Virus record (IMG/VR): IMGVR_UViG_3300035181_000428
Span: 1-35,568 of that record
Origin: a virus
Reading direction: 5' to 3' (one strand)
DNA length: 35,568 nucleotides
Positions 5,428-35,228 of the stretch are shown in pieces; position 1 is the first letter of the stretch, and each line of letters begins with the position of its first letter. The position numbers and the translations under genes are program-made. The notes under the pieces were generated by a model. The model ran no database searches and was not told the DNA's origin. It saw only the letters and a list, made by a program, of their open reading frames with translations.

Positions 5428-5604
5428 AATGGGCTGTGAAAACACAGTTACTTCTTTTTCACAGTAAAAGTAAAAGAAGTAACTGCGTAACTATAGCCTT
5501 ATTTTTTGAGCTGAAAATGGGCTTTGAACAGTTACCCCTTTTCACAGTTTTAGCAAAAGAAGTAACTTCGTAACTGTAGCCTTATTTTTGAGATGAAATG
5601 GGCT
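5426..5604. repeat. Degenerate 81-88-bp tandem repeat within the iteron array
   Basis: The phrase GAAATGGGCT recurs at 5426, 5513 (one extra A) and 5595. The phrase TAGCCTTATTTTT-GAG recurs at 5494 and 5578. This marks two full units and the start of a third, each containing an inverted pair of iterons. The array therefore grew by duplication of a hairpin-bearing unit. Confidence 0.7.
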
Positions 5605-5918
5605 TTGAACAGTTACTTCTTTTGGTTACAGTTACTTCTTTTTGTATTTGTTGAAAAGGGGTAACTGTTCTAAGCTGTTGATTTCATTGATAAAAAAGTG
5701 AAATAGTTACGAAGTTACTGAAGTTACCCCTTTTTCAAGGTTTCCCAAGAAAACAGTGTTTTTTTGTTTTATCTGCAGTTTTGCTGTTTTGTCACAGTTA
5801 CTTCTTTTCACAGTTAAAGCAAAAAAAGTAACTGTAGTAACTGTTGCTGTTTTTGTCACAGTTACTTCTTTTTGCAAGAAGAAAAAAAGAAGTAACTGTT
5901 CAAAAAAAGTTACTTTTT
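5426..5918. repeat. Bidirectional iteron array, candidate replication origin
   Basis: Twelve copies of a roughly 14-base element (consensus CAGTTACTTCTTTT, variant CAGTTACCCCTTTT) are visible. Plus-strand copies lie at 5445, 5529, 5610, 5629, 5722, 5795 and 5859; reverse copies at 5472, 5555, 5654, 5821 and 5885. Half-copies GTAACTG or AGTTAC lie at 5487, 5570, 5705, 5713, 5837 and 5908. Most are paired head to head, so each pair can form a hairpin; 5859-5873 with 5885-5898 is a perfect stem. The array is non-coding, AT-rich and adjacent to primase and helicase genes, all typical of a phage origin. Transcriptional regulation is the alternative. Confidence 0.75.
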
Positions 5919-6220: not shown

Positions 6221-6736
6221 ATGAATTCAACATTACTCAAATACGGTTTAGCGGTGCTGCTCGCTATAGGAGCTCTTTATGCGATCTACCACAGCGGGTA
6301 TAAAGCAGGTGAATACTATGTTCAAAAAGTCTGGGATGATGAGAAGGTAAAGACTCAAGCAGCACTAGATAAAGCGGTTGCTGATTTGAAGTTAGCTCAA
6401 GCAGCAACAAACACTAAAGTAGAGGTCAAATATGTCGACAGAATCAAAATCGTTAAAGTTAAAGGAGACACCATTGAAACGCTTATCCCTCAAATCATCA
6501 CTGTTAAAGATGATGCTGCTTGCCAGTTGCCTACCAATTATGAGTGGTTGCTCAACACAGCCGCAGCACCTAGTAACGATACAACCTTACCCTCAACCCC
6601 CAGCTCAACTGATGGAGCCACCACGCCCATTACTCTCAGTGAAGCAAGCAAATCAGTTGTCGAAAACTACACCATCTGTAATCAAAACGCAGAGCAACTA
6701 AAGTCACTTCAAGATTGGGTTAAACTCCAAAAATAA
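6221..6736 (+). CDS. Rz: Inner-membrane spanin, Rz-like
   Basis: The 171-residue protein has an N-terminal membrane anchor (about residues 6-24, LLKYGLAVLLAIGALYAIY). A long periplasmic helical domain follows, with a Thr/Ser/Pro-rich stretch near 115-135 and a C-terminal segment NYTICNQNAEQLKSLQDWV that is typical of Rz proteins. A second lipoprotein gene is nested in the +1 frame, the classic Rz/Rz1 arrangement. Spanins span the periplasm and fuse inner and outer membranes at the last step of lysis, which implies a Gram-negative host. AGGATAAGGAT precedes the ATG. Confidence 0.85.
   Translation: MNSTLLKYGLAVLLAIGALYAIYHSGYKAGEYYVQKVWDDEKVKTQAALDKAVADLKLAQAATNTKVEVKYVDRIKIVKVKGDTIETLIPQIITVKDDAACQLPTNYEWLLNTAAAPSNDTTLPSTPSSTDGATTPITLSEASKSVVENYTICNQNAEQLKSLQDWVKLQK
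6474..6701 (+). CDS. Rz1: Outer-membrane lipoprotein spanin, Rz1-like, embedded in Rz
   Basis: This frame lies wholly inside the Rz gene in the +1 frame. It reads as a short lipoprotein: basic N-terminus MKRLSLK, a hydrophobic core, lipobox candidates LASC (Cys19) and MSGC (Cys26), then a proline-rich tail including QPYPQPPAQLMEPPRP, much like lambda Rz1. I prefer the TTG start at 6474 because AAAGGAG (6461-6467) lies six bases upstream and the result is a normal-length signal peptide. An upstream ATG at 6432 (with AGAGG before it) would add 14 residues. The product is about 75 residues. It should form a disulfide-linked or noncovalent complex with Rz across the periplasm. Confidence 0.8.
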   Translation: MKRLSLKSSLLKMMLLASCLPIMSGCSTQPQHLVTIQPYPQPPAQLMEPPRPLLSVKQANQLSKTTPSVIKTQSN

Positions 6737-21934: not shown

Positions 21935-24900
21935 ATGGGATGGTTAGACGCAATTGGGGCGGCCTTTAGTTGGCTAGGTGGAGAAGGATTTGGTGCTGCT
22001 CTAGCACGGATTGCTATTGGGCTTGGGATCAGCAAGTTACTTCAAAATAATCAAGAAAACGCAGCAAACGGTGCTTCATCATCTACACCACGCGGTCAAC
22101 GGCAACAAATTTCACCTGCAACTGACAATAAAGTTCCAGTAGCATATGGTGACTCTTATTTTTCTGGGACTATCACAGATGTTCAGTTAACTAATGCGAA
22201 TAAGCAAATGTTCGCTGTTTTAAATCTGTGTGAGAAAACAGGTGACATCTACTCTACTAATCCTGGCAATCCAGCGTCTCGGGCAATGTCTAGCATCACT
22301 ATTGATGACATTTACATTAGCAATCAGAAAGTTACGTTCATGGCAGACGGCACTACAGTTGACTATACGACTGATGATACCGGAGTGGTCGATACTAACT
22401 TACACGGGTTGGTAGGCATTTATCTGTATCAAGGTAGCAGCAATTCACCAATGCTGCCGTGTATTACTGGAACTACAACTCCTATAGCAGGCACCACCCC
22501 AGCCGCGGCATATTCCCTTATGCCTGGTTGGGATAATACTTACACTATGGAGAATTACATCTTTGCGGTAGTAGAGATGAATTATGATCCAAGCAAAGGT
22601 GCTCACACAATTCCGCAGATAAAGTTCCATGTCCGTAACACCATGAATAAGCCAGGTGATGTGCTTATTGATTACGCAACTAATTTAATGTATGGTGCTG
22701 GGCTAACAGAGGAAGCGATTGACCTTACCTCAATCACTAACCTAAACACATACAGCGATGAGTTAGTTACTTACGGCACTTATCCTGCTCAACCTCGCTA
22801 TAGAATTAACGGGTTGGTAAGAACTACAGAAACAGTCTTGACTGTTATGGAAAAGATCGCTGCTACTGCTGGTTCAGATATTAGCTACGATGTCAGCACT
22901 GGCAAGTGGGCTGTACTAACAAACAAGCCAGTCACTAAGACTTTAGATTTTAACGACAACAATATTATTGGGCAGATAAATCTTACTTCAAGCAACCTAG
23001 ATTCTTATTACAATCAGATTGAGGTTCAGTTTCCGTATGCGATTTTAAAAGACCAGTTTAACTATGTCAGAGTTAACTTACCTGCTGGTGACTTAAATCA
23101 AAACGAAAATCCTAATATGTATCAACTCACCCACGAGTTGACTAACAATTTAGTGCAGGCATCTATTCTTGCTAATTTAGATTTACGCCAATCACGAGAG
23201 GATTTGCTCGTAACGTTCAACACAGATTACAGCAAATATAATATTCAGATTGGTGATGTATTTGGTATCACTAACTCTGTTTATGGATGGACAGGCAAAC
23301 AGTTCAAAGTAATCCGTGTCAAGAAGACAGAGTCAGATGCAGGCCAGCTAACGGTTGAGATTACAGGGCTTGCTTATAATCCTTCTGTGTTTACAGTAAG
23401 CGACATAAGCACGTTTGTTCCAAGTACAGGTATTGGTCACTCTTTGCCATCGCTTAGTCCTATCGCTACCCCAGAAGCTCCGACTGTTAACACGACAACC
23501 ATATCATCACAACCAAGCATATCTATTACTGGTATCATACCTACTGGTGTGGTTACAGAGATGGAATTTTGGTACACAAAAGATACTGATCCAGTAGATG
23601 ATAATAGAAAATATACCATGCTCGGTGTTATGCGAGCAGAGAATAGTGGTCCGTTCCTGATTGGAGTAGCCACAGTATTTAAAACTGTTTTGCTCGCTAG
23701 TGGGACCTACTATTTTAAAGTTAGAGCAGTAAATGAGAGCGGCTCTAGTAAGTTCAGTCTACCTAGTGTAGCTACTCCTTACACTTATGTTCAGACTCCT
23801 GATGCATTACCGTATCATGTGCCAGTCGTAGATTCTACAGGTGCGGCTGTAGGTGGTATGTCACTAGGGTTGATGGCAGGATATTTAGCGACTAAGTTAA
23901 ACTGGTTTGGTCCTGGTGGTATCTTTAGTGGTAATGCTACTTTAGCATCTATATTTGGATTGAGTAATACTGATGCTGCTGCTATTGATAATGCAGTTAA
24001 CGCAGATACTGCCGCACAAAACGGCGTGACAGGAGCAGTTTCGACGGCTGATGCCGCTCAAGCAACAGCAACTAATGCTATGACTGCAGCAACAAACGCT
24101 GAGTCAGCAGCTTCTCAAGCAACCTCTGCCGCTGCCCAAGCAAGTGCTGATGCCGCGGCAGCAAAAGCAGCCGCTGAAGCGGTGGGTGGTGTTTTATCTC
24201 CGCATATTTCAGTAGAGGATGGTAAAGTATTTCCGTCTGTATTTGGTGATGGCCCAACTCCTGGTGCTAGCACTCATGCAGGTATCTTTACGCACGATAA
24301 TTTAGTGTTCTCAGGATCTCTACATACTCTGATGAAACCAGAGAATGTAGTTTCTGCAGCAACTACTTTAAAAGTTGAGATCACAGGTAAGATTCAAAAC
24401 TTTTATACGATTCCTGGATCAACTTCCTGGGCAAAACCACCTCTTTACACTCAAACCATAGTAGATAAGTTTGAATACAACTCTAAGCTATGTCTGTATT
24501 ATTCAACAGCAACTTATGCTGGTGGTGCGTTAGATGCCCAATCATGGTCTCCATGGACCCTAATTAATTGTGATAATGGAGTAAGAGGAACACCAGCAGG
24601 TTATCCAACATCAACGACTACTTACACAAATCCGTATGTTGATAATCCAGATTACATTGTTGATGAAATATATGATGTTGATGCTTTTGGGTTTGTTATT
24701 TTAGGCACAGCACAAAAATACGATCCTTTCAAACCAAATATTCCAGTAACAGTAACAACTTACGCTGATCGTGATACTCGACAAAAAGAATTATGGCTTA
24801 CTGTTGGTGGCAGCAAAGCATTTAGTGCTGGTACAAGCGACTTGATTACATTTGGAACATCGCCGTTTAACCTACCTTCAGGCACACCGTTTGCTGGGAA

Positions 24901-25597
24901 TACAGCTTTTGGACACGTAGATGTGGTATATCGTCAGGTTTACCCTAATGCGTTATCGTTCCGTGAGATGGCTAATAATGGATCTCGATTTGTCGCAATT
25001 CAAACAGCATCTGATAAAGTTTATTGGAGTGATGATGGTGCATTATGGAATCGTGTAGAAGAGGTCGTTAGTGTCACTACTAACCCAGCATGGATAGATA
25101 ATGAATATCCTTTCGCTGGTGAGCAAAACTTCTTATTCTTAGTTTTTGACGGTAGTAAGTTCATTGTTTATCAAAACGATAATAGCGTAGCTACTTCATC
25201 AGATGGTAAAGTTTGGACAGAAATCAATGCCAGTCAAGGTATTGATAAAGATACAACTCAAGTGATCGCAGATTCTGGTCACTACTTAACAATCGGCCCA
25301 GCAGGAATTCAAACGAGTACTGACGGCATAAATTGGTCGGCACCATCACAACCAGCTGCATTTGAAAAACAACAAGCAAAATGCGGTTGCTGGGATGGTA
25401 GTAAGTTCATCGTCGGTGCTACTTACATATACGGTCAAGGATCAGCAATGTTTTCGTCAGCAGATGGGACTACTTGGGCAAAGATGAACATGTTTAACAA
25501 ACCATCTATATCACAACTTCTATCAGAGTCACAAACAGCCATCCTAAACGGACAGACTGGTATAATTGGTGGTATCACCAGTGCCCTTCCTATATAG
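21935..25597 (+). CDS. Tail tip host-specificity protein, J-like
   Basis: The 1220-residue protein has an N-terminal hydrophobic segment (about 15-40), a long TipJ-type body (about 60-490, with ILANLDLRQSREDLLVTF and QIGDVFGI), a fibronectin III-like domain (about 515-620), and an Ala-rich coiled coil (about 690-750). The last 200 residues contain four Asp-box motifs, near 1031 (SDDGALW), 1088 (SSDGKVW), 1128 (STDGINW) and 1175 (SADGTTW), so a beta-propeller is likely. J proteins form the tail tip and bind the cell-surface receptor. The propeller probably carries receptor specificity. AAGGA precedes the ATG. Confidence 0.85.
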   Translation: MGWLDAIGAAFSWLGGEGFGAALARIAIGLGISKLLQNNQENAANGASSSTPRGQRQQISPATDNKVPVAYGDSYFSGTITDVQLTNANKQMFAVLNLCEKTGDIYSTNPGNPASRAMSSITIDDIYISNQKVTFMADGTTVDYTTDDTGVVDTNLHGLVGIYLYQGSSNSPMLPCITGTTTPIAGTTPAAAYSLMPGWDNTYTMENYIFAVVEMNYDPSKGAHTIPQIKFHVRNTMNKPGDVLIDYATNLMYGAGLTEEAIDLTSITNLNTYSDELVTYGTYPAQPRYRINGLVRTTETVLTVMEKIAATAGSDISYDVSTGKWAVLTNKPVTKTLDFNDNNIIGQINLTSSNLDSYYNQIEVQFPYAILKDQFNYVRVNLPAGDLNQNENPNMYQLTHELTNNLVQASILANLDLRQSREDLLVTFNTDYSKYNIQIGDVFGITNSVYGWTGKQFKVIRVKKTESDAGQLTVEITGLAYNPSVFTVSDISTFVPSTGIGHSLPSLSPIATPEAPTVNTTTISSQPSISITGIIPTGVVTEMEFWYTKDTDPVDDNRKYTMLGVMRAENSGPFLIGVATVFKTVLLASGTYYFKVRAVNESGSSKFSLPSVATPYTYVQTPDALPYHVPVVDSTGAAVGGMSLGLMAGYLATKLNWFGPGGIFSGNATLASIFGLSNTDAAAIDNAVNADTAAQNGVTGAVSTADAAQATATNAMTAATNAESAASQATSAAAQASADAAAAKAAAEAVGGVLSPHISVEDGKVFPSVFGDGPTPGASTHAGIFTHDNLVFSGSLHTLMKPENVVSAATTLKVEITGKIQNFYTIPGSTSWAKPPLYTQTIVDKFEYNSKLCLYYSTATYAGGALDAQSWSPWTLINCDNGVRGTPAGYPTSTTTYTNPYVDNPDYIVDEIYDVDAFGFVILGTAQKYDPFKPNIPVTVTTYADRDTRQKELWLTVGGSKAFSAGTSDLITFGTSPFNLPSGTPFAGNTAFGHVDVVYRQVYPNALSFREMANNGSRFVAIQTASDKVYWSDDGALWNRVEEVVSVTTNPAWIDNEYPFAGEQNFLFLVFDGSKFIVYQNDNSVATSSDGKVWTEINASQGIDKDTTQVIADSGHYLTIGPAGIQTSTDGINWSAPSQPAAFEKQQAKCGCWDGSKFIVGATYIYGQGSAMFSSADGTTWAKMNMFNKPSISQLLSESQTAILNGQTGIIGGITSALPI

Positions 25598-25599
25598 CA

Positions 25600-25607
25600 C
25601 TAAATAA
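25600..25607 (+). promoter_or_regulatory. Octamer CTAAATAA before the propeller-protein gene
   Basis: Located 21 bases upstream of ATG 25629 in a 31-base gap after the J-like gene, with AAAAAGGA between as ribosome-binding site. One of the recurrent octamers. Confidence 0.4.
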
Positions 25608-25628
25608 TAGAAAAAGGATTTAAAGATT

Positions 25629-27584
25629 ATGTCAATTATAGCAGTATCATCACTTGACGGTAGTACGGTTTCTTCATTTTCCAGTGATAATGTTCTAAAC
25701 ATTTTCAATAATACCTTCCCCTCTTCATCGACCACATTGTCGTATGCTGCTACTAACGGCTCTCGAATTATTATTGTAAGGGACACAAGTGTAAATATAT
25801 CAGACGACGGCGGTTGGACGTTTACCACTTATTCAGATGCTTATCAGAGATTGACTTTATTTTGGAATGGATCAAACTTTGTTAGTTTTGATACTATCAC
25901 AAAAACTTATCTTTATTCACCAACAGGAAATTCTGGTACCTGGGTTAGTAACACAATTAGCACATACACGAGTGATTCTGACACTACTAGTATTGCTTGG
26001 TATGTTGATGCAGGGACAACTTTTGTTACCTGGGGAACTGCAACTGGAATCAAATCAACTCGTACTATTAATAATGGGGAAACCTGGACAACTCCGTTAT
26101 ATACCACATCTTATGGACATCTACGTTTTGAAAGAGATTCATTTATAAAATCTGGGTCATACTACTATATTATTGGTTACGATGACACACAATTTTATAA
26201 ATCTTATCTTTTAACATCAACTGATGGTGTAAATTGGTACACCTCATCTGCGGGGGCACCTTTTAATGTTGATCTTAATACTGGGTGGTATCCTAAAACT
26301 ATCTGTGCTAGCGGTAGCAATATGATTACAATGGGGTCAACACATACACTTCAAAATACGGCTATTTATTACTATTCATCAGACAATGGAATTACTTGGA
26401 CATATGCTTACTTAGGTGGAATACTTGATACTACGTGGCGATTACAAACTTATGCTGGTTTGTTCTATCTATCTAGTGTATATACAAACGGTACTCAGAT
26501 AACTTCAGATATGATTAACTGGACTTCTCAATTTGGAGTACCGATTTATGGTAATGGTATTGTTAGGTCACCAATAAATATTCTTAGGCGTAACGCAGCG
26601 GCAACTAGCACTTCAACTTTAATTAAGAAAGTAATAAGATTTAAAAACTTTTTAGTTACAGTCGTATCCTCAGCCAATTCTTTAAGTTCCAGAGTTAAAC
26701 TTCTAACACAATCAGTATTATCAAATTCAAACTCATATATTCAGAAATTTACAAAAATGTCAAGGAAGGCATTAGTAACATCAATACCGACATCTTTTAT
26801 AGGCAGACTTTATTTTCGAGCACTAAATGCGGTCTCGACATCAATCTCTACATTCTTTGGGTATGATACCACATTTAGACGAACACTTAATGCGGTCTCG
26901 ACATCAATCTCCAACATATCTTTTAATCAGCATTGGGCTAACATCTGGTCTATGCTGTATAAAACATCACAATGGATTGGAGTTAAAGTTGGAACTGCGA
27001 TTGGTGTTACATCGCCAGATGGTACGACCTGGACTACACAAACGTTACCTAGTTCACAAAACTGGGTCGCATTAGCAAATAATGGGACGATAAATGCCAC
27101 TATTGCTAAAGGAACAGCGATAGCAGCTAGCTCACCTGACGGTATTACGTGGACTCAACAAGCATTACCAGCAACAAGATTATGGTCATCGCTAACAGCT
27201 AAAACTGGATTATTTGTGGCGGTTGCACTTCAGACGGATAAGAGTGCTATTTCCGCAGATGGAATTACCTGGACTGAACAATCATTACCAGCCTCTGCGA
27301 ATTGGACTTCTGTCACTACTAACGGAACAATTTTTGTTGCGGTTTCAGATAATGGCATCGCTGCTACATCGCTAGATGGTATTACCTGGACACAGTATGC
27401 TATGCCTGACCAACTGCACTTTAATTGCGTTACTTGGGCACTTAACCAGTTTACAGCAGTAGCATCTGGACCAACTAACTTAGCTGCTAGTTCTCCAGAT
27501 GGTATTACCTGGACTAGAGTTTATATGCCAAGTTCACAAAATTGGACTGGTGTAGGTCCTGGCGTAGGAAATCCAAATGTCTAA
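25629..27584 (+). CDS. Asp-box beta-propeller adhesin, 651 aa
   Basis: Nine Asp-box-like motifs are visible. Four lie in the first half (DNA near 25799, 26066, 26217, 26378). Five very regular ones lie in the last 200 residues (27013, 27132, 27250, 27369, 27491), about 40 residues apart, one per propeller blade. Between them (about 317-440) is a Ser/Thr/Lys-rich linker built from degenerate units such as NAVSTSIS, of which a 25-base stretch is repeated 63 bases apart near 26825 and 26888. Asp-box propellers occur in sialidases and carbohydrate-binding adhesins. No catalytic sialidase residues were identified, so binding to host surface sugar is more likely. Its end overlaps the next gene. Confidence 0.75.
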   Translation: MSIIAVSSLDGSTVSSFSSDNVLNIFNNTFPSSSTTLSYAATNGSRIIIVRDTSVNISDDGGWTFTTYSDAYQRLTLFWNGSNFVSFDTITKTYLYSPTGNSGTWVSNTISTYTSDSDTTSIAWYVDAGTTFVTWGTATGIKSTRTINNGETWTTPLYTTSYGHLRFERDSFIKSGSYYYIIGYDDTQFYKSYLLTSTDGVNWYTSSAGAPFNVDLNTGWYPKTICASGSNMITMGSTHTLQNTAIYYYSSDNGITWTYAYLGGILDTTWRLQTYAGLFYLSSVYTNGTQITSDMINWTSQFGVPIYGNGIVRSPINILRRNAAATSTSTLIKKVIRFKNFLVTVVSSANSLSSRVKLLTQSVLSNSNSYIQKFTKMSRKALVTSIPTSFIGRLYFRALNAVSTSISTFFGYDTTFRRTLNAVSTSISNISFNQHWANIWSMLYKTSQWIGVKVGTAIGVTSPDGTTWTTQTLPSSQNWVALANNGTINATIAKGTAIAASSPDGITWTQQALPATRLWSSLTAKTGLFVAVALQTDKSAISADGITWTEQSLPASANWTSVTTNGTIFVAVSDNGIAATSLDGITWTQYAMPDQLHFNCVTWALNQFTAVASGPTNLAASSPDGITWTRVYMPSSQNWTGVGPGVGNPNV

Positions 27585-28194
27585 TACGGTTGATAAAATC
27601 ATAGCAATTTCAAGAGATACCTCAGTCTCTGCTCAGACAGAGAACGGTATTTCTTGGCAACAAGAAGACCAGCAAGATTATGTCTGGAGGGGTATTGCTG
27701 GGTCGCAAGGGAAATACACTTATTTCACTTGCGACAGGTATAACCCGTTTGCTACAGTGAACTATACAAATAACAACTACACTACCTGGGTTGGTGGTGT
27801 GTTGCCAGCACCACAGTTGTCTTGTATAATGGCAGTTGCTCGTGATGCACAAAATATTACAGTAAGCTATGATGGCTCTTCGTTTATGGATGTAGCACCA
27901 CCAGTGTTTAGCAATTCAACAGTTTACGGTGGGAATAAGATAGTTCAGAACTGTCAAGCAACTTCAACATCATTTAGCCAATCGTTTACTGCGGTTAATG
28001 TTAAGTTGTTCTTCGTTATCGGAACAGCAGTATCGCATGTTTATTCTTGGTCGCAAGAACTTAAATGTCGAGTTGTTGACTTGACTACAATTTCATTCAC
28101 AAATGCAAAAACTATAACAAATTCTATATTCAGTAGGACTTATTCAGTAGTAGCGAGTTCAGTGTCCACCTTCTTAGGAGCATTTAGATGGTAA
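27577..28194 (+). CDS. Propeller-linker tail protein, 205 aa (possible 5' half of a split gene)
   Basis: The product starts with two blade-like units (TENGISW near 22 and VSYDGSSF near 99) and ends with the same Ser/Thr linker as its neighbours (RTYSVVASSVSTFLGAFRW). It stops where the related 651-residue protein continues into a second propeller. The next gene starts in another frame, overlapping by seven bases. ATG 27577 overlaps the preceding stop, so translation is coupled. Likely part of the tail-tip adhesin complex. Confidence 0.65.
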   Translation: MSNTVDKIIAISRDTSVSAQTENGISWQQEDQQDYVWRGIAGSQGKYTYFTCDRYNPFATVNYTNNNYTTWVGGVLPAPQLSCIMAVARDAQNITVSYDGSSFMDVAPPVFSNSTVYGGNKIVQNCQATSTSFSQSFTAVNVKLFFVIGTAVSHVYSWSQELKCRVVDLTTISFTNAKTITNSIFSRTYSVVASSVSTFLGAFRW

Positions 28195-29000
28195 ATTTTG
28201 ATGGTATGATTCCTACACTAGGAATAAGTCTTGGGAAAGTAGTAAATATGCTTTTCGACAAGCAAAATAAGAGATCTATTGTTGCTTCTAATGCCCAGTC
28301 TGTTGGTGTGAGCGAGACAACTGGTGATCCATATACACAAAATAGTAATCGTGATTGGAACAAACTAACAGTCGATTCTATCTATGCAAGTGCTGGTAAA
28401 ATATTAGCATTAGGGTCTGGCATTACGTCAACCAACCAATCGCAGAAACTCGCCTGGACTAATAACTCAGGGGACTGGGTGATTGGATATAGCCCAATCG
28501 CCCAAACAATCAGACCTAAGGGGATTGGATATTCATCTGGTAAATTTGTAATCGCTACTGGGGGATACACGATTGTATCTGATTTTAAATATAAGTCATC
28601 TGGATCAAGTGGTTTAGTTAAATCGCTTCCTGGAACAGCAATCACTAATACAGGTAATCCTATCGATTCTATATCAACAGGTTCGACTGTTATGGTTGGT
28701 GCTTCTTTAAGTCGTAGTGGAACTTGGACTGTCGCAACATCAGTAGGTGCATCGTCAGATTGGGGTCATCAATACGGTGAAGCAGAGCTGGTTAAAACTA
28801 ATCATAGATCTACCTCTTATACTTTTCCTGGTTATACTGCTACAGCACCGCAAATACAACGCCCATCTGCTATACCGTTTGGTGATAAGCCCCCAGTTGA
28901 TTGGACTACAGCAAACGAGATAACAGAAGGATACTACGGTGTAAATGGTAATAAGGAGGGTGGAATACTTACTACTTTCACTACGACCTGGTCGGTATAA
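28188..29000 (+). CDS. Second-propeller tail protein, 270 aa (possible 3' half of a split gene)
   Basis: The N-terminus carries MLFDKQNKRSIVASNAQSVG and then blade-like units (SETTGDPYTQ, LAWTNNSGDWVIG). It lines up with the region after the linker in the 651-residue protein. ATG 28188 lies inside the last codons of the previous gene, in the -1 frame, right after a TAG. The C-terminus (about 195-270) is aromatic and Gly-rich and has no counterpart in the others. Likely a receptor-binding accessory. Confidence 0.6.
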   Translation: MVNFDGMIPTLGISLGKVVNMLFDKQNKRSIVASNAQSVGVSETTGDPYTQNSNRDWNKLTVDSIYASAGKILALGSGITSTNQSQKLAWTNNSGDWVIGYSPIAQTIRPKGIGYSSGKFVIATGGYTIVSDFKYKSSGSSGLVKSLPGTAITNTGNPIDSISTGSTVMVGASLSRSGTWTVATSVGASSDWGHQYGEAELVKTNHRSTSYTFPGYTATAPQIQRPSAIPFGDKPPVDWTTANEITEGYYGVNGNKEGGILTTFTTTWSV

Positions 29001-29003
29001 ATA
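28996..29003 (+). promoter_or_regulatory. Octamer TATAAATA after the 28188-29000 gene
   Basis: An exact match to the T4 late-promoter core overlapping the stop of the preceding gene, 75 bases before ATG 29079. The gap between contains no clear terminator. Confidence 0.4.
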
Positions 29004-29078
29004 AAGATGACCAAACAGATTTAACGATTTCGTAAAAGACCCCTGAAGTGGGCTCTGATTTAATAGGATATAAAATAT

Positions 29079-29483
29079 ATGGCAGTACAATACAACATAA
29101 TCGTTCCTCAAGGAGCAACCAAAGTAATACCTTTTAAGGTAACGGTACTTACTGATCCTTTGCTTGATTACGACCCTGTTACTAACCCGCGTCTCCCGCT
29201 TGATCTGACTTTAGCGTCGATTGAAATGCAGGTTCGTCAGACATATAACACATCTACAGTTTTGCTTACTGCGACTACTTTAAATGGTAAATTCGTTACT
29301 ACTAATGCTATAGCAGGTGAATTTGAACTTAGACTGTCACCAGCTGATACAGTAGATTTTAAATTCAATGCTGCTCAAGCATCTTACTTTTACGATATTG
29401 AGGCAAGGTTTTCAGCAACAAACATTTTACGCATCGCACAAGGAAACTTTGTGGTGCAACGAGAAATAACGAGGATAGCATAA
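29079..29483 (+). CDS. Baseplate/tail accessory protein, BppU N-terminus-like
   Basis: A 134-residue beta-rich protein. It follows the pattern of small phage proteins that begin with a Q-G-A-T strand (VPQGATKVIPFKV) and continue with LDLTLASIEMQVRQ, FELRLSPADT, YFYDIEARF and GNFVVQREITR. I associate this pattern with BppU-like N-terminal domains that attach receptor-binding proteins to the tail. AGGA precedes the ATG. It lies among adhesin genes, which fits a docking role. Confidence 0.6.
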   Translation: MAVQYNIIVPQGATKVIPFKVTVLTDPLLDYDPVTNPRLPLDLTLASIEMQVRQTYNTSTVLLTATTLNGKFVTTNAIAGEFELRLSPADTVDFKFNAAQASYFYDIEARFSATNILRIAQGNFVVQREITRIA

Positions 29484-29484
29484 T

Positions 29485-29664
29485 ATGGCGTCAATAAACG
29501 GACTTGGTGACTGCAAATCAGCAGAAGTATCGATGCAAATTATTCGTGCTAACGGAAAGATAGAGGACCTTGGTGTAGTAAGTTACTACCACAAGAATCC
29601 ACTTAAAAGGGCGATCTTTAAGATCAGACAGATGTTAGGTTTAAAAACCCAACAAAAAATTTAA
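29485..29664 (+). CDS. Small basic hypothetical protein, 59 aa
   Basis: A 59-codon frame begins at ATG 29485, one base after the previous stop, with GAGGA upstream, and ends at TAA 29662-29664. The product has a basic C-terminus (NPLKRAIFKIRQMLGLK), probably an amphipathic helix. Its tight position supports it. Function unknown; it might be a chaperone for neighbouring tail proteins. Confidence 0.6.
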   Translation: MASINGLGDCKSAEVSMQIIRANGKIEDLGVVSYYHKNPLKRAIFKIRQMLGLKTQQKI

Positions 29665-29687
29665 CAAACATATAAAGGAAAATTATT

Positions 29688-30077
29688 ATGGCATTCGGAA
29701 CAGCAACAGTTTTGACCTCTGCAGGTCGTGCGATTACTACAAATCGTCTTAAAGGTGCAGGCACAGAACCAGCTTACGTAGGTGTAGGCGTAGGTGCTAC
29801 TGCTGCGGCTCGCACCGCAGTTGCAGCAGATACAGCTCTTAGTTCACCAGTTGAGTCTCGTGTATTAGGTACTTCTTCGCAAGTAACTACTACATCAACC
29901 AGCGATACTTACCAAGTGGTTGGAACAGTAACAGCAACCGCGGCTCGCTCGGTTGATGAGGCAGGGTTGTTTGATGCAGCTACGGCAGGCAACATGTATC
30001 TCTCTGCTACATTCCCTGTGGTCAGCCTAAGCACAGGTGACTCGATCCAAACTACACTTAAAGTTCAATACTCTTAA
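29688..30077 (+). CDS. Phage structural protein, 129 aa
   Basis: A 129-residue Ala/Thr/Val-rich protein with AAAGGA upstream. The segments PAYVGVGVGATAAART, then ADTALSSPVESRV, then DEAGLFDAAT and YLSATFPVVSLSTGD follow a pattern often seen in small virion proteins encoded near tail fibres. It probably folds as a beta-sandwich decorating the tail or fibre. A strong terminator follows (30098-30129). Confidence 0.6.
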   Translation: MAFGTATVLTSAGRAITTNRLKGAGTEPAYVGVGVGATAAARTAVAADTALSSPVESRVLGTSSQVTTTSTSDTYQVVGTVTATAARSVDEAGLFDAATAGNMYLSATFPVVSLSTGDSIQTTLKVQYS

Positions 30078-30097
30078 TTGTAAGGGGTTTTGGGTTA

Positions 30098-30129
30098 AAA
30101 GGGTCACGTGTAAAACTGACCCTTTTTTG
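30098..30129 (+). terminator. Rho-independent terminator after the 29688-30077 gene
   Basis: AAAAGGGTCA (30098-30107) pairs perfectly with TGACCCTTTT (30118-30127), loop of ten bases, and the T-run extends to 30129. The A-rich 5' arm means it could also work in reverse. Confidence 0.9.
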
Positions 30130-30163
30130 TTATGATAAGTAATACTAGATAGGGGAAATAAGA

Positions 30164-30481
30164 ATGACATTAAAAACTATATCGGATACTATTGGGAATG
30201 TTACTGTAGTTACAGGAACTATTAATGGTATTGACCAAGTTATCACAGGTAGAGATGTGTCACAACTATTTAGAGTTATTGATGATAATTTAAGAATGCT
30301 TACTCAGTCTGAAGCATACTGCTTACTATATGAGATTCAAGCAAATTTAGTAGCAGAGGTTTTAAATTTTCAAAGTATTCCGTCCACCACATTCTTTAAG
30401 GAAGATAGTACTCTATTTTATGGGATTACTTATAATGGCATTACTATAGGAAATGTATGGTCGAGTGGGGGTAACATCTAA
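30164..30481 (+). CDS. Hypothetical protein upstream of the large adhesin, 105 aa
   Basis: A 105-residue protein with a beta-rich N-terminus, a helical middle and AGGGGA upstream. It ends overlapping the ATG of the 1074-residue adhesin (TAATG at 30479-30483), so the two are translationally coupled. It may anchor or chaperone that adhesin. No family recognised. Confidence 0.65.
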   Translation: MTLKTISDTIGNVTVVTGTINGIDQVITGRDVSQLFRVIDDNLRMLTQSEAYCLLYEIQANLVAEVLNFQSIPSTTFFKEDSTLFYGITYNGITIGNVWSSGGNI

Positions 30482-33400
30482 TGGCATTTATTGTATGTCC
30501 TGGTGCGGCAGGTGGTGGTAGTAACGGAAGATATTCTTCTGATGGTATTACTTGGGTAGCATCATTATTTCCAGGTTCTGCAGTAAATTGGACTTGCCCT
30601 GGAAAAATAAATGGGGTTTTTGTAGCGGTTCAGAATAATTCAAATATTTTTGCCACCTCAAGCGATGGTATTAACTGGACTACTGGCACTTTACCTGCGT
30701 CACAGACATCTATTGTTGGCACACATAGCGGTACGAAAATTTTAATTACAAGTGGTAGTTCTTATTTTTCGACAAGCGATGGTATTAACTGGTCAACTGG
30801 TAGTTTACCAAATAGTTCTGGTGGTATAGTACATTATAATGGGTCAAGATTTGTATCTGTTTCGGCTAACACCACATATAGCTCTTATTCCACAGATGGT
30901 GTTACTTGGTATGCTGGTGGCGTTGTCCCTCAAAGTTCAAATCAAAGAATAACCTGGAATGGAACAGTTTTTATTGTTATTGACTCTGGCAATGGGGGGT
31001 CGTCAGTAGCTACATCGCCAGACGGTATTACATGGACTGCTAAGACTTCTTTACCTGCAGTAACCTGGGGAGTAGCAGCAAAAAAGTCAACAGGGTTAGT
31101 AGTTATTACCTACGGAAACCCATCAAGTACCTGCTCATACTCTACTGATAATTGTGTTACATGGAGTACCACACCACTACCAACATCACAGCTTTGGCGT
31201 GATATAAGTTATGATGAAACATTAAATTTATTTTGTACATTTGCGTATAATTCTGCTCCTATAACTACCTCTTCAAATGGGATTAACTGGGTAAGTGCAA
31301 CTGGTGTTTCTGATGGTAATCAGAACTGGTTAATTACAGGGGATAGAGTATTTGGAAATACCTTTACTCAAACTTGTTTAGCAGCCCCTACTTCAATAGC
31401 ATCAGAATCATCATCGACATTACACGGATATATTAACCCAGTATCTCTTTTAAGTAATGTAACATCTAATGCAAGTGCAACATTAGTTAAAATAACTCCA
31501 AGTTTATTTTCTACGTCCGCTGGGACTACTTTAGCTTACTCACCGTCAGGTACGTCTGGATGGTTAACTAAAACCATGCCAGCAGCATACGGTACTAGGA
31601 AATATAATGGTTTGTATTGGTTAGGTTTAGTTTGGGGTGGTACGTCAGTTGGAAAATCAACCGACGGAATTACATATACACAAATCAGTACTGGGATTCC
31701 TAATAAGTCTTGGTACACTTTATCCTGGTCTCCTACTTTAAGTTTATGGATGGCGGCATCAAATACAGGAGACATAGTAACCTCTCCAGACGGTGTTACA
31801 TGGACTACGCGAACTCCAGCAACTGCAGGTAACACATTTTTTAAAGCAGCCTGGGGCAATGGTAGATTTGTAATAGGGGTACGGAGCTCAACTACTTTTC
31901 AAACATCTGTAGACGGTATTGTATGGACTAATGTATCTATACCATCAGCTATTGGTAGTGTAGGTGATGTAATCTGGACAGGACAAGCATTTTTAGTGTG
32001 TTCTCAAGATAATAACAATATAGCACGATCACTAGACGGAATTACCTGGGCATTAATTAGTTCACCTGCGAGTTCAAAATGGAATTTTGCATGTAATTCC
32101 AGTGGCGTAGTTATTATTGCTCTTGATAGTAGTGTTAATTGTTTATATTCTAATGATCATGGCTTAACCTGGGTTACTAAAACTATGCCAGCGAATCAAC
32201 GCTGGGGGGTTACTGGTGTTGCATACGATGGCAGTAAATTTATCATGGGAGCATACAGTTCATCTTCATGGGCTACCTCAACGGATGGGCAAACCTGGAC
32301 AAGTATTACTGGCGTTAATGGTAGTTATACTGGTGAAATGCGTAGTGCCTGGTTACTTAGTTCTGGAACTACTTTTAATCAGATATCATCTGCTTTATCG
32401 TCATCTTCCCTTAATTTTTCACTTCGTGGCAATAAAGTTTTTAAAGCGTTACCAATATCGTTATCTACTCGACCAAATTGGAATATTACAGCATCAAAAG
32501 CAGCGGCATCTACAACTACTTCGGTAATTAAGAAAGATTCGTTTCTAACTAAAGTATCAACTTTAGTCAATACAATGTCGGCTACTATCGCTAACATTGG
32601 TTCAGCCATAAGGTATTACTCTGCGTCAGCATCATCAGCAGTTATACCAATAATCCAAAAATCGATTTCTTGGACTAAGTCTGCATCTGCTAGTTCGACA
32701 TCAACTCTAAGTAAAGCGATTTCTTGGACTAAGTCTGCATCTGCTAGTTCGACATCAACTCTAAGTAAAGCGATTTCTTGGACTAAGTCTGTATCTGCCG
32801 TTACCACTTCAAAGCTAAGTAAAGCGATTTCTTGGACTAAGTCTGCATCTGCTAGTTCGACATCAACTCTAAGTAAAGCGATTTCTTGGACTAAAACAGC
32901 AACTACTGTATCTACCTCAAATACAAGTAAAGCGGTTCTGTTAAACAAGACTGTTTTAGTTAATGCTCTACCGGCTCACCAAAGAGTAGTTCAAATTATT
33001 CGTATTTCAATTACGTCGGCAGTAGTGTCGTTAACAAAAATAATTGCTAAAACTTTTAGTCTGAATTCTTTGACATCAGCATACGCTACTGTTTTAAACT
33101 TAATTACGACACAGTATATGATTGGTATGGCTTCTGCTGCTACTATACCTAAAGTTATACGTGATATCTTCGTTAGAAATAACGCAAATTCATCATCACT
33201 CGGCTCTATTAAAAAAATACCTGCTATTGAGAGATCATACAATACAGCATCGCTACCTGTATTATCTAAAACTGCGGGGTTGTTTAAAACTACATTAGTT
33301 GGAACGGCGTCACTTATTTCTAAAGCCGTATCAGTAACTAAAGACACAGCATATAGCATTATTTTAGGTTCTTCCAGTCAAGTCATTATTGGTATTAAGA

Positions 33401-33705
33401 GTGTAATAGCGGCAGCAGTGTCAATATCATCATCAATAACTGCTGGGAAGTTTGTTTATATTTCAAAGACTTTGGTAGTGAATTCAAATTCACTAATAAC
33501 GAAGTTTATTACAACAACAAAATCTGTAATTTCTTCATCAGTTAGCAGAGTCTTTGCCTTTGTACCTTCAAATATTAGATCACTTTATTCAATCTTTGTT
33601 ACTATTTTTGGCACAAATATTAAAGATCAAGAAGTAGTTATAACTGAATCAGTTGTTAACCTTGATATTGAATCAACACCTAGGATTGAGCTTCAAGTAA
33701 TCTGA
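30481..33705 (+). CDS. Large double beta-propeller adhesin with repeat stalk, 1074 aa
   Basis: Thirteen Asp-box-like motifs occur about 40 residues apart in two blocks: seven from 30535 to 31290 and six from 31658 to 32298. This fits two beta-propellers joined by a short Ser-rich linker. After residue about 640 the protein becomes a long Ser/Thr/Lys/Ile-rich repeat region. It includes five near-identical 18-residue units (32662-32931) and many degenerate ones with the pattern K-x-x-S-x-x-S-x-x-S-T-x-x-x-K. The last 40 residues turn acidic. Probably a side fibre or adhesin with the propellers binding host glycans; which end is virion-proximal is unclear. No catalytic residues identified. Confidence 0.75.
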   Translation: MAFIVCPGAAGGGSNGRYSSDGITWVASLFPGSAVNWTCPGKINGVFVAVQNNSNIFATSSDGINWTTGTLPASQTSIVGTHSGTKILITSGSSYFSTSDGINWSTGSLPNSSGGIVHYNGSRFVSVSANTTYSSYSTDGVTWYAGGVVPQSSNQRITWNGTVFIVIDSGNGGSSVATSPDGITWTAKTSLPAVTWGVAAKKSTGLVVITYGNPSSTCSYSTDNCVTWSTTPLPTSQLWRDISYDETLNLFCTFAYNSAPITTSSNGINWVSATGVSDGNQNWLITGDRVFGNTFTQTCLAAPTSIASESSSTLHGYINPVSLLSNVTSNASATLVKITPSLFSTSAGTTLAYSPSGTSGWLTKTMPAAYGTRKYNGLYWLGLVWGGTSVGKSTDGITYTQISTGIPNKSWYTLSWSPTLSLWMAASNTGDIVTSPDGVTWTTRTPATAGNTFFKAAWGNGRFVIGVRSSTTFQTSVDGIVWTNVSIPSAIGSVGDVIWTGQAFLVCSQDNNNIARSLDGITWALISSPASSKWNFACNSSGVVIIALDSSVNCLYSNDHGLTWVTKTMPANQRWGVTGVAYDGSKFIMGAYSSSSWATSTDGQTWTSITGVNGSYTGEMRSAWLLSSGTTFNQISSALSSSSLNFSLRGNKVFKALPISLSTRPNWNITASKAAASTTTSVIKKDSFLTKVSTLVNTMSATIANIGSAIRYYSASASSAVIPIIQKSISWTKSASASSTSTLSKAISWTKSASASSTSTLSKAISWTKSVSAVTTSKLSKAISWTKSASASSTSTLSKAISWTKTATTVSTSNTSKAVLLNKTVLVNALPAHQRVVQIIRISITSAVVSLTKIIAKTFSLNSLTSAYATVLNLITTQYMIGMASAATIPKVIRDIFVRNNANSSSLGSIKKIPAIERSYNTASLPVLSKTAGLFKTTLVGTASLISKAVSVTKDTAYSIILGSSSQVIIGIKSVIAAAVSISSSITAGKFVYISKTLVVNSNSLITKFITTTKSVISSSVSRVFAFVPSNIRSLYSIFVTIFGTNIKDQEVVITESVVNLDIESTPRIELQVI
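32662..32931 (+). repeat. Five-copy in-frame 54-bp tandem repeat
   Basis: Units start at 32662, 32716, 32770, 32824 and 32878. Units 1, 2 and 4 are almost identical, unit 3 and especially unit 5 are diverged. Each codes for AISWTKSASASSTSTLSK or a variant (Ser first in unit 1). Near identity of units 1, 2 and 4 points to recent duplication, so copy number may vary between relatives. Confidence 0.9.
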
Positions 33706-33741: not shown

Positions 33742-34140
33742 ATGGCGGATAATAATAATACCACTAACGAGCAGTCACTAGCTCACTACGAACTAGAACG
33801 ACGCACTACCTCGTTGCAAGTGGAGTCTGCTACTTTGCGAGAAAACGCTCGTAGTGTCGAAAAACTTTTAGCTAGACTTGAATTGGGGCAGGCAAAAACA
33901 GAGACTACTTTAGCAGAGATTCAAGCAGGACTATCTAAAATCAACTCGTTTAACGAGTCATCTTTTATGACAGTTAGCAAAATGATTGATGAAAAGTTGA
34001 TCCCAATCAAATCTGAATTAGAACTTAGAAAAGAAGAAGTTCAGAAACTTAAAACTATTATAGGAGTGGTAACCTTTTTGGGTTCTATTATTTGGGGTTT
34101 AGTAGTGACCTTTAAAGATTATCTTTTTAAGCATGTATGA
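33742..34140 (+). CDS. Coiled-coil protein with C-terminal membrane anchor, 132 aa
   Basis: Residues about 15-100 are a charged heptad-like coiled coil. Residues 105-123 (TIIGVVTFLGSIIWGLVVTF) form one membrane helix, followed by a short basic tail. The layout resembles XhlA-type or holin-associated membrane proteins and could act in lysis, but no family match is certain. The stop overlaps the hemerythrin gene start by eight bases, so the two proteins are made together. AGAAAG is a weak ribosome-binding site. Confidence 0.7.
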   Translation: MADNNNTTNEQSLAHYELERRTTSLQVESATLRENARSVEKLLARLELGQAKTETTLAEIQAGLSKINSFNESSFMTVSKMIDEKLIPIKSELELRKEEVQKLKTIIGVVTFLGSIIWGLVVTFKDYLFKHV

Positions 34141-34582
34141 TTTTGAACAGTACAAGTTAAATATTCCAGAAATTGATTCAGACCACTTAGATATGTTAGA
34201 GTTGTTGTCTCAGTTAGCAAATAAATCTGTATCTGATTCAGAGAAATCGCTGTTACGGGTGAGGTTTATTGAGTTATCGGCTAGACATTTATCACTAGAG
34301 CTTAAAATAATGAGTGAGGCTCATTATCCAGTAGAAGAGGCTCATACAGCGGAGCATTTAAAAATACTACACCAGGCAATGGATTTATCTGATAATTTTA
34401 CCACAGAAGATATTACTCAATTGCTCGAATACTTATTACATCACATAGATACATTTGATCGTGCATTTTCTATTTTCATATCAAAAAATCGTTCTCGCCG
34501 CAAATCAGATCAAGAAAAACGACAAGAACGACGACAACAACAGCAACAGCTCAGTCTTTGGCCTGCTTTGCCTGAAGTTTAG
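34133..34582 (+). CDS. Hemerythrin-like oxygen-binding protein
   Basis: The 149-residue protein carries the full bacteriohemerythrin signature. IPEIDSDH supplies His18; HLSLELKIM supplies His52 and Glu56; YPVEEAHTAEH supplies His71 and His75; HHIDTFD supplies His104 and Asp109. These are all seven di-iron ligands in canonical spacing (H-x3-E, H-x3-H, H-x4-D). Hemerythrins bind O2 at a non-heme di-iron site and serve in oxygen delivery, sensing or detoxification. The C-terminal 30 residues are an Arg/Gln/Lys-rich tail absent from typical family members and could bind nucleic acid or membrane. It overlaps the upstream membrane-protein gene by eight bases and the convergent HNH gene by 32 bases. 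Confidence 0.9.
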   Translation: MYDFEQYKLNIPEIDSDHLDMLELLSQLANKSVSDSEKSLLRVRFIELSARHLSLELKIMSEAHYPVEEAHTAEHLKILHQAMDLSDNFTTEDITQLLEYLLHHIDTFDRAFSIFISKNRSRRKSDQEKRQERRQQQQQLSLWPALPEV

Positions 34583-35228
34583 CAGCACGAAGAGCAGCCA
34601 AGTCTATTATCTCATATCCACTAACTTGTGGGCTATACACAGGCCCGGTGTAATCTTTATCTAGTTCTGTCTTTTTGCGTGTAATCAGTTTTAAGTATCC
34701 TGCTTTAGCAATTGGTAGATCAAACTCTTTCATAACCTTACTACAAGTAATAGATCTGATGTAGCAGCGATAAAACGGTGTATCGTATTTCTTTCTGTAG
34801 CCACACTTTACTTCTGAGTGAAGCATATATTCATTTCGTGTGGTGCAGAGTGTAAGATGCTCTGGATTAGTACACTGTGGGTTATGGCAAGTCGCAAGCG
34901 TAAATTCCCCTTTAACTATAGGGCGACCTAATTTAAGGGCAAGAGCGAAACGCTGTGCATTCATCTGTCCAGATTTACTGTGCTCTGGATCGTTTTCTTT
35001 ACGAACATTATAAAATCCGTATCCTTGCCTGTGGTTAGCACCTTTCCAAATGTAACAGTCGTCAGGAGTAGCACCTGGAATGCTCTTACTTTCCCAATCA
35101 TCCTTGTAATATTTCCAAATATACCCTGCAAAATCTGGGTGCTCTAGTGTTTCATATGGGGACGACTTTTTTCGTCTAATAGATTTCACTTCAGCAGGCT
35201 TGATTGGGAGGAATTTTTGTTTATTCAT
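34551..35228 (-). CDS. HNH endonuclease
   Basis: The only supported minus-strand gene, 225 residues. CYIWKG (58-63) and MNAQRFALALKLGRP (89-103) are followed by CHNPQCTNPEHLTLCT (114-129). This is the HNH_3-type motif with a Cys-His pair (114/115), Asn121, His124 and a later Asn132; metal and catalytic residues are intact. A basic C-terminal region (about 140-190) may bind DNA. On the minus strand ATAAATAC lies a few bases before its ATG and no Shine-Dalgarno is visible. Free-standing HNH enzymes in phages are usually homing endonucleases; some act in packaging, but then they normally sit next to the terminase, which this one does not. Confidence 0.85.
   Translation of the reverse strand: MNKQKFLPIKPAEVKSIRRKKSSPYETLEHPDFAGYIWKYYKDDWESKSIPGATPDDCYIWKGANHRQGYGFYNVRKENDPEHSKSGQMNAQRFALALKLGRPIVKGEFTLATCHNPQCTNPEHLTLCTTRNEYMLHSEVKCGYRKKYDTPFYRCYIRSITCSKVMKEFDLPIAKAGYLKLITRKKTELDKDYTGPVYSPQVSGYEIIDLAALRAAKLQAKQAKD

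What the first reader, a model, noticed from the sequence alone, without database searches (positions are those of the whole stretch)
34133..34582. Phage-encoded hemerythrin with an intact di-iron site
All seven ligands of a bacteriohemerythrin (His18, His52, Glu56, His71, His75, His104, Asp109) are present in canonical spacing, so this is very unlikely to be a decayed or chance match. Oxygen-binding proteins are not standard cargo for a 35-kb siphovirus. The added Arg/Gln-rich C-terminal tail is not part of the usual fold. Possible roles, all inference: buffering O2 during infection, sensing oxygen to time lysis, or altering host oxygen-dependent signalling.
Basis: partly seen in the sequence, partly recalled or inferred. 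Interest (0 to 1): 0.82.

Follow-up and report, generated by a model that had tools for sequence, protein, structure and literature searches.

The report
Phage-borne oxygen-binding hemerythrin gene
A complete 35-kb environmental phage genome carries a divergent but apparently intact gene for hemerythrin, an iron protein that binds oxygen, in a spot where related phages carry other optional genes; such genes seem to have been overlooked in phages although dozens sit in uncultivated viral sequences.

Summary
ORF 34133-34582 (+, 149 aa) is a bacteriohemerythrin with all seven di-iron ligands in canonical spacing (NCBIfam NF033749 E 7e-13, TIGR02481 E 3e-11, both below curated cut-offs; Pfam PF01814 misses it). 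AlphaFold gives the four-helix bundle (pLDDT 96); the 14 best solved structures are all hemerythrins. The gene lies in a complete, terminally redundant phage genome. A related phage contig (terminase 70%) has a hemerythrin only 28% identical with all seven ligands kept, at the same place: after a coiled-coil/transmembrane gene and before an HNH gene. A closer relative (terminase 90%) lacks it, and other relatives have a glycosyltransferase or TylF-type methyltransferase there, so it is cargo in a variable slot, not core machinery. No PHROG, no convincing isolated-phage record and no paper found describes phage hemerythrins, yet a ligand-motif scan of IMG/VR found about 46 distinct ones, 11 in a virus-only clade. 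Most likely it is a soluble O2-binding protein that buffers or scavenges O2 in the infected cell; O2 binding and role are untested. The Arg/Gln tail is a low-complexity extension of helix 4, absent from the relative. Timing of lysis has little support.

The parts
34133..34582 (+). bacteriohemerythrin (149 aa); ligands H18, H52, E56, H71, H75, H104, D109; oxygen-pocket Leu101 (aligned with McHr Leu114)
   Evidence: ORF; NCBIfam; fold; ligand conservation
34286..34357 (+). core di-iron motif HxxxExxxMxxxxYPxxxxHxxxH
34484..34579 (+). Arg/Gln-rich C-terminal extension (residues 118-149), pI about 11.4 against 4.8 for the domain; CAA/CGA-rich low-complexity DNA; predicted continuation of helix 4; absent in the relative P0002
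33742..34140 (+). coiled-coil protein with one C-terminal transmembrane segment; its end overlaps the hemerythrin start (34133-34140); a homologue precedes hemerythrin in G003 and stands without hemerythrin in G001
34551..35228 (-). HNH endonuclease-like gene, convergent, overlapping the 3' end of the hemerythrin gene; homologue at the same place in G003 and G001
30481..33705 (+). large tail-fibre-like protein upstream of the cargo slot
   Evidence: position and repeats

Best explanation
A genuine bacteriohemerythrin carried as accessory cargo by a tailed phage. Shown by computation: family, fold, intact ligand set, complete phage genome, conserved place and ligands in a second phage, variable content of the slot in relatives. 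Inferred: it is made late, translated together with the preceding coiled-coil/TM gene (8-nt overlap), loads two irons, binds O2 reversibly and acts as a soluble O2 buffer or scavenger in the infected cell. This would protect O2-sensitive Fe-S enzymes, or keep O2 available to oxidases, while host gene expression is failing, as HerA/HerB do in Campylobacter and McHr-type proteins are thought to do in methanotrophs. Probability that it is a real di-iron hemerythrin: about 0.95; that O2 buffering or scavenging is its main role: about 0.5.
For: Profile matches; model pLDDT 96.2, pTM 0.84, with the same helices from the single sequence at lower confidence; the 14 best solved structures, all hemerythrins, at Z 15.9-16.9 and 1.5-1.9 A, with the next row at Z 13.7. 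All seven ligands conserved against 28% overall identity in phage G003, which was found by its terminase and not by the motif. Leu101 corresponds to the McHr Leu114 position (alignment). G003 has the same order CC-TM, Hr, HNH. A terminal repeat of 169 bp shows a complete genome. GC and GC3 of the gene are like the phage's. Viral hemerythrins are nearly all single-domain: 2 of 47 lie in ORFs of 400 aa or more, against 21 of 62 domains in the bacterial loci sampled, which favours the O2-binding module itself over fused sensors. Known single-domain hemerythrins protect Fe-S enzymes (PMC4257069) or are proposed to deliver O2 (PMC12607906).
Against: No biochemical, expression or host data. Scores are below the curated cut-offs and Pfam PF01814 misses it. 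The host and its oxygen regime are unknown. The gene is absent from the closest relative G001, so it is not needed by this phage group. The basic tail could give it a different partner or place.
Confidence: 0.6

Rival explanations
1. O2 (or NO) sensor that works with the co-translated coiled-coil/TM protein to time lysis or signal to the membrane; the basic helix-4 tail would transmit the signal.
For: 8-nt gene overlap in the window and adjacency in G003; weak match of the CC-TM protein to phrog_937 'hemolysin' E 0.05; L042 also has a coiled-coil/TM gene two genes away; hemerythrin domains act in O2 sensing when fused to MCP or GGDEF domains (PMC4919030).
Against: The CC-TM gene occurs without hemerythrin in G001, and look-alikes precede a glycosyltransferase or TylF-type gene in G414, G411 and G413. 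A Rz/Rz1-like pair and a GTA-holin-like gene lie at 6.2-7.4 kb. The tail is missing in G003.
Confidence: 0.12
2. ROS, NO or peroxide defence, or iron sequestration, rather than O2 handling.
For: Hemerythrin-like proteins affect the peroxide response in mycobacteria (PMC4295536 and PMC4660385, abstracts); a di-iron site can bind NO (general knowledge).
Against: The ligand set and pocket Leu are those of O2-binding hemerythrins, and the matched models and structures are the O2-binding subgroup, not YtfE or HHE-type models.
Confidence: 0.15
3. Transient passenger recently taken from the host, with no role in infection.
For: Absent in the closest relative; placement in trees unresolved.
Against: Same slot and ligand set in G003 at 28% identity, and a tree holding the two together is not rejected and scores 6.3 lnL higher (p-AU 0.72); base composition like the phage; no cellular hemerythrin with the shared HHIDx[FWY]DRxF signature in the genome scan.
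Confidence: 0.1
4. Scaffold with a hemerythrin fold that no longer binds iron (structural or binding protein).
For: Low scores against curated cut-offs.
Against: Seven of seven ligands kept, and conserved at 28% identity in the relative.
Confidence: 0.03

Closest known systems
Methylococcus capsulatus bacteriohemerythrin McHr (PDB 4xpx)
   Same: seven ligands, four-helix bundle (Z 16.3, 1.8 A over 118 residues), pocket Leu, single domain
   Different: about 20% identity; the present one is phage-borne, lacks the N-terminal Trp motif and has a basic C-terminal extension
DcrH-Hr (PDB 2avk, hemerythrin domain of a chemotaxis protein)
   Same: best structural match (Z 16.9; tied with the others)
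   Different: DcrH-Hr is the sensor end of a chemoreceptor; here there is no fused domain
Campylobacter HerA/HerB
   Same: single-domain bacterial hemerythrins; proposed analogue of function
   Different: cellular; not compared by sequence here
Uncultivated-virus hemerythrins found here (L024-L076; G003/L061 closest in context)
   Same: virus-borne, single-domain, ligand motif
   Different: 15-28% identity to the window protein; most sit in other genomic contexts

Membership tests
O2-binding bacteriohemerythrin (TIGR02481 / NF033749) | five His, one Glu and one Asp ligands in the spacing H...HxxxE...HxxxH...HxxxxD | tested here: met
O2-binding bacteriohemerythrin (TIGR02481 / NF033749) | significant match to the family profile | tested here: met
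   E 7e-13 and 3e-11
O2-binding bacteriohemerythrin (TIGR02481 / NF033749) | score over NCBI's curated cut-off (an annotation threshold rather than a biological feature) | tested here: not met
   48.8 of 84 and 43.5 of 51.75 bits: a divergent member that automatic annotation would not name
O2-binding bacteriohemerythrin (TIGR02481 / NF033749) | antiparallel four-helix bundle of the hemerythrin type | tested here: met
O2-binding bacteriohemerythrin (TIGR02481 / NF033749) | oxo-bridged di-iron centre that binds O2 reversibly | not testable with these tools
   needs purified protein
Pfam PF01814 (hemerythrin HHE) | score over gathering cut-off | tested here: not met
   no hit; several other viral relatives pass
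Phage accessory (cargo) gene | inside a phage genome, present in some relatives and replaced by other genes in others | tested here: met
   terminal repeat
Holin or other lysis component | membrane segment or homology to lysis proteins in the hemerythrin ORF itself | tested here: not met
   soluble acidic domain, no such profile

The most novel reading that the evidence does not exclude
Phages maintain their own long-standing lineages of O2-binding hemerythrins, separate from present bacterial ones, and use them to manage oxygen in infected cells: a widespread and overlooked class of viral auxiliary gene acting directly on O2.
Probability: 0.4. Interest if true: 0.78.

Novelty: new member of a known kind. 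Interest (0 to 1): 0.58.

Why it matters
Viral auxiliary genes are known for photosynthesis, carbon, sulphur and nitrogen metabolism (general knowledge), but a dedicated O2 carrier was not found among the families catalogued for phages (no PHROG). If these proteins bind O2 in infection, viruses would act directly on the oxygen budget of infected cells, and the idea is testable with one small soluble protein that has a diagnostic absorbance spectrum.

Tried and rejected
Pfam and PHROG scans gave no hemerythrin for the window protein. tblastn of the protein against INPHARED: nothing; with McHr, three records, of which the Acinetobacter 'phage' MD-2021a contig examined carries bacterial chromosomal genes around the match (the second is the same organism name and score) and the third is an unannotated 7.7-kb fragment. 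IMG/VR scans with one or two sequences found no further relative; the ligand-motif pattern did. That pattern fixes H52, E56, H71, H75 (and M60, Y65, P66), so only H18, H104 and D109 are independent evidence in that set. Two of its 53 stretches (L026, L031) are not hemerythrins. Some others may be host or prophage sequence (e.g. L027, fused to a chemoreceptor). Structure library of viral proteins (BFVD): no hemerythrin named among the hits, which does not show absence. Genome scan with the shared C-terminal signature: 31 hits, none a hemerythrin; a strict pattern, so weak negative evidence. Phylogeny cannot place the window protein firmly. No intrinsic terminator separates the CC-TM and hemerythrin genes. 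Literature searches in the open library found no phage hemerythrin; subscription papers and preprints were not searched. The idea that the HNH gene mobilises the hemerythrin gene is not favoured, since HNH is at the same place in G001 without hemerythrin.

Full report
What is there. ORF 34133-34582 on the + strand encodes 149 aa. NCBIfam profiles recognise it as bacteriohemerythrin (NF033749 E 7e-13; TIGR02481 E 3e-11) but under their curated cut-offs; Pfam PF01814 does not see it. It is a true but divergent member.

Fold. With an alignment of 34 viral hemerythrins AlphaFold2 gives mean pLDDT 96.2 and pTM 0.84: helices 12-28, 35-62, 68-83, 91-141. Alone, the sequence gives the same helices at pLDDT 68. 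Foldseek and VIA-align place hemerythrins first: ranks 1-13 and 1-14, Z 15.9-16.9, 1.5-1.9 A over 106-119 residues, with a gap to Z 13.7 for a de novo bundle. Leu101, three residues before His104, aligns with Leu114 of the Methylococcus protein, the position changed in the solved mutants 4xpw, 4xpy and 4xq1.

The tail. Residues 118-149 are basic (pI 11.4; the domain is at 4.8), encoded by CAA/CGA-rich DNA, and modelled as a continuation of helix 4 before some eight loose residues. The related phage protein P0002 ends soon after the domain and lacks the tail. The simplest reading is a low-complexity 3' extension reaching into the convergent HNH gene (the ORFs overlap at 34551-34582); a function is possible but not indicated.

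The genome. The window has a 169-bp direct terminal repeat at 98% identity, as does the relative G001 (187 bp), so it is a complete, terminally redundant phage genome of about 35.4 kb with terminase, portal, capsid, tape measure and J-like tail genes. The hemerythrin gene has phage genes on both sides, and its GC (0.36) and GC3 (0.28) lie within or near the phage's range (0.40; GC3 0.23-0.36). The nearest annotated phages are distant (portal 24-26%: Pelagibacter phages, lake phage DSL-LC06). The host is unknown.

A second phage with the same arrangement. Terminase searches found 8 and then 29 contigs, nearly all of this group. G003 (terminase 70%) encodes a hemerythrin 28% identical to the window's. 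All seven ligands are among the 36 conserved of 128 aligned columns (hypergeometric P 9e-5), while the non-ligand His64 and His80 are not kept. Its gene follows a homologue of the 33742-34140 coiled-coil/TM gene (E 4e-9) and precedes a homologue of the HNH gene, about 10 kb before the terminase, as in the window across the terminal repeat. So the site appears to be under selection, and the gene has either been in this phage group for long or entered the same slot twice. Holding the two hemerythrins together in a tree is not rejected (p-AU 0.72, likelihood higher by 6.3).

A cargo slot. G001, the closest relative (terminase 90%), has the CC-TM gene followed at once by HNH, with no hemerythrin. 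In G414 and G411 a similar short coiled-coil/TM gene after the tail fibres is followed by a family-2 glycosyltransferase gene (in G411 with a small gene between) and in G413 by a TylF-type methyltransferase (these CC-TM genes match the window's by place and architecture, not by significant sequence score). None of the 16 relatives searched except G003 has hemerythrin, though most are fragments. The position is therefore a variable slot for accessory genes.

How common in viruses. The ligand-motif pattern found 53 stretches in IMG/VR; about 46 distinct ORFs are hemerythrins. The three ligands that the pattern does not fix (H18, H104, D109) are conserved in most; the exceptions (L025, L036, L051, L053 first copy, L058, L072) lose H104 or D109 in the alignment. 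L053 and L059 carry two hemerythrin genes in a row. Eleven form a virus-only group, many with the start ERFxHYxxG (support 87/83); the window protein lies elsewhere and is unresolved. None of those tested has a PHROG. In INPHARED no convincing hemerythrin was found. Some IMG/VR contigs may be host-derived; context was examined only in part.

Function. The most likely reading is a soluble O2-binding protein made late in infection. Single-domain hemerythrins protect Fe-S enzymes from O2 in Campylobacter (PMC4257069), and in methanotrophs a McHr-like homologue is thought to supply O2 to methane oxidation under hypoxia (PMC12607906). Viral copies are rarely fused to signalling domains (2 of 47 in ORFs of 400 aa or more, against 21 of 62 bacterial domains sampled; the bacterial sample was picked by similarity to viral proteins), which speaks for O2 handling more than sensing. 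Lysis timing is possible through the overlapping CC-TM gene, but that gene stands without hemerythrin elsewhere, and a nested Rz/Rz1-like pair and a holin-like gene lie at 6.2-7.4 kb. O2 binding, expression and any phenotype are not shown.

Verdict. What is new is the phage cargo slot with hemerythrin, ligand conservation across two diverged phages, and dozens of viral relatives that no catalogue searched here names.

Noticed in passing
window 6221-6736 and 6432-6701 (+): Rz-like protein with an out-of-frame nested small lipoprotein ORF (lipobox-like LPIMSGC): looks like an embedded Rz1; homologues of the outer gene occur in relatives G001, G003 and G007.
   Followed up: partly
window 21935-33705: Tail proteins carry about 20 repeats of the type S.DG..W (Asp-box-like), and 32659-32934 is a 54-bp tandem repeat; no Pfam match for the 1074-aa protein.
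   Followed up: no
L053:1983-2821 and L059:2633-3462: Two hemerythrin genes in tandem in large viral contigs, one of each pair much more divergent; in L053 the first copy lacks the aligned Asp ligand.
   Followed up: partly
L191 (G414), L195 (G411), L193 (G413): The same slot in related phages holds a family-2 glycosyltransferase or a TylF-type methyltransferase: a general accessory-gene site in this phage group.
   Followed up: yes
L012 (CAKLQH020000030.1): GenBank record named Acinetobacter phage MD-2021a carries bacterial housekeeping genes around its hemerythrin; it looks like a mislabelled chromosome contig.
   Followed up: partly
window 5444-5899: Two intergenic tandem-repeat arrays (83 and 64 bp units) sharing AGTAACTG-type words, in the non-coding stretch after the DUF5906 (primase-like) gene; possible replication origin or regulatory site.
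   Followed up: no
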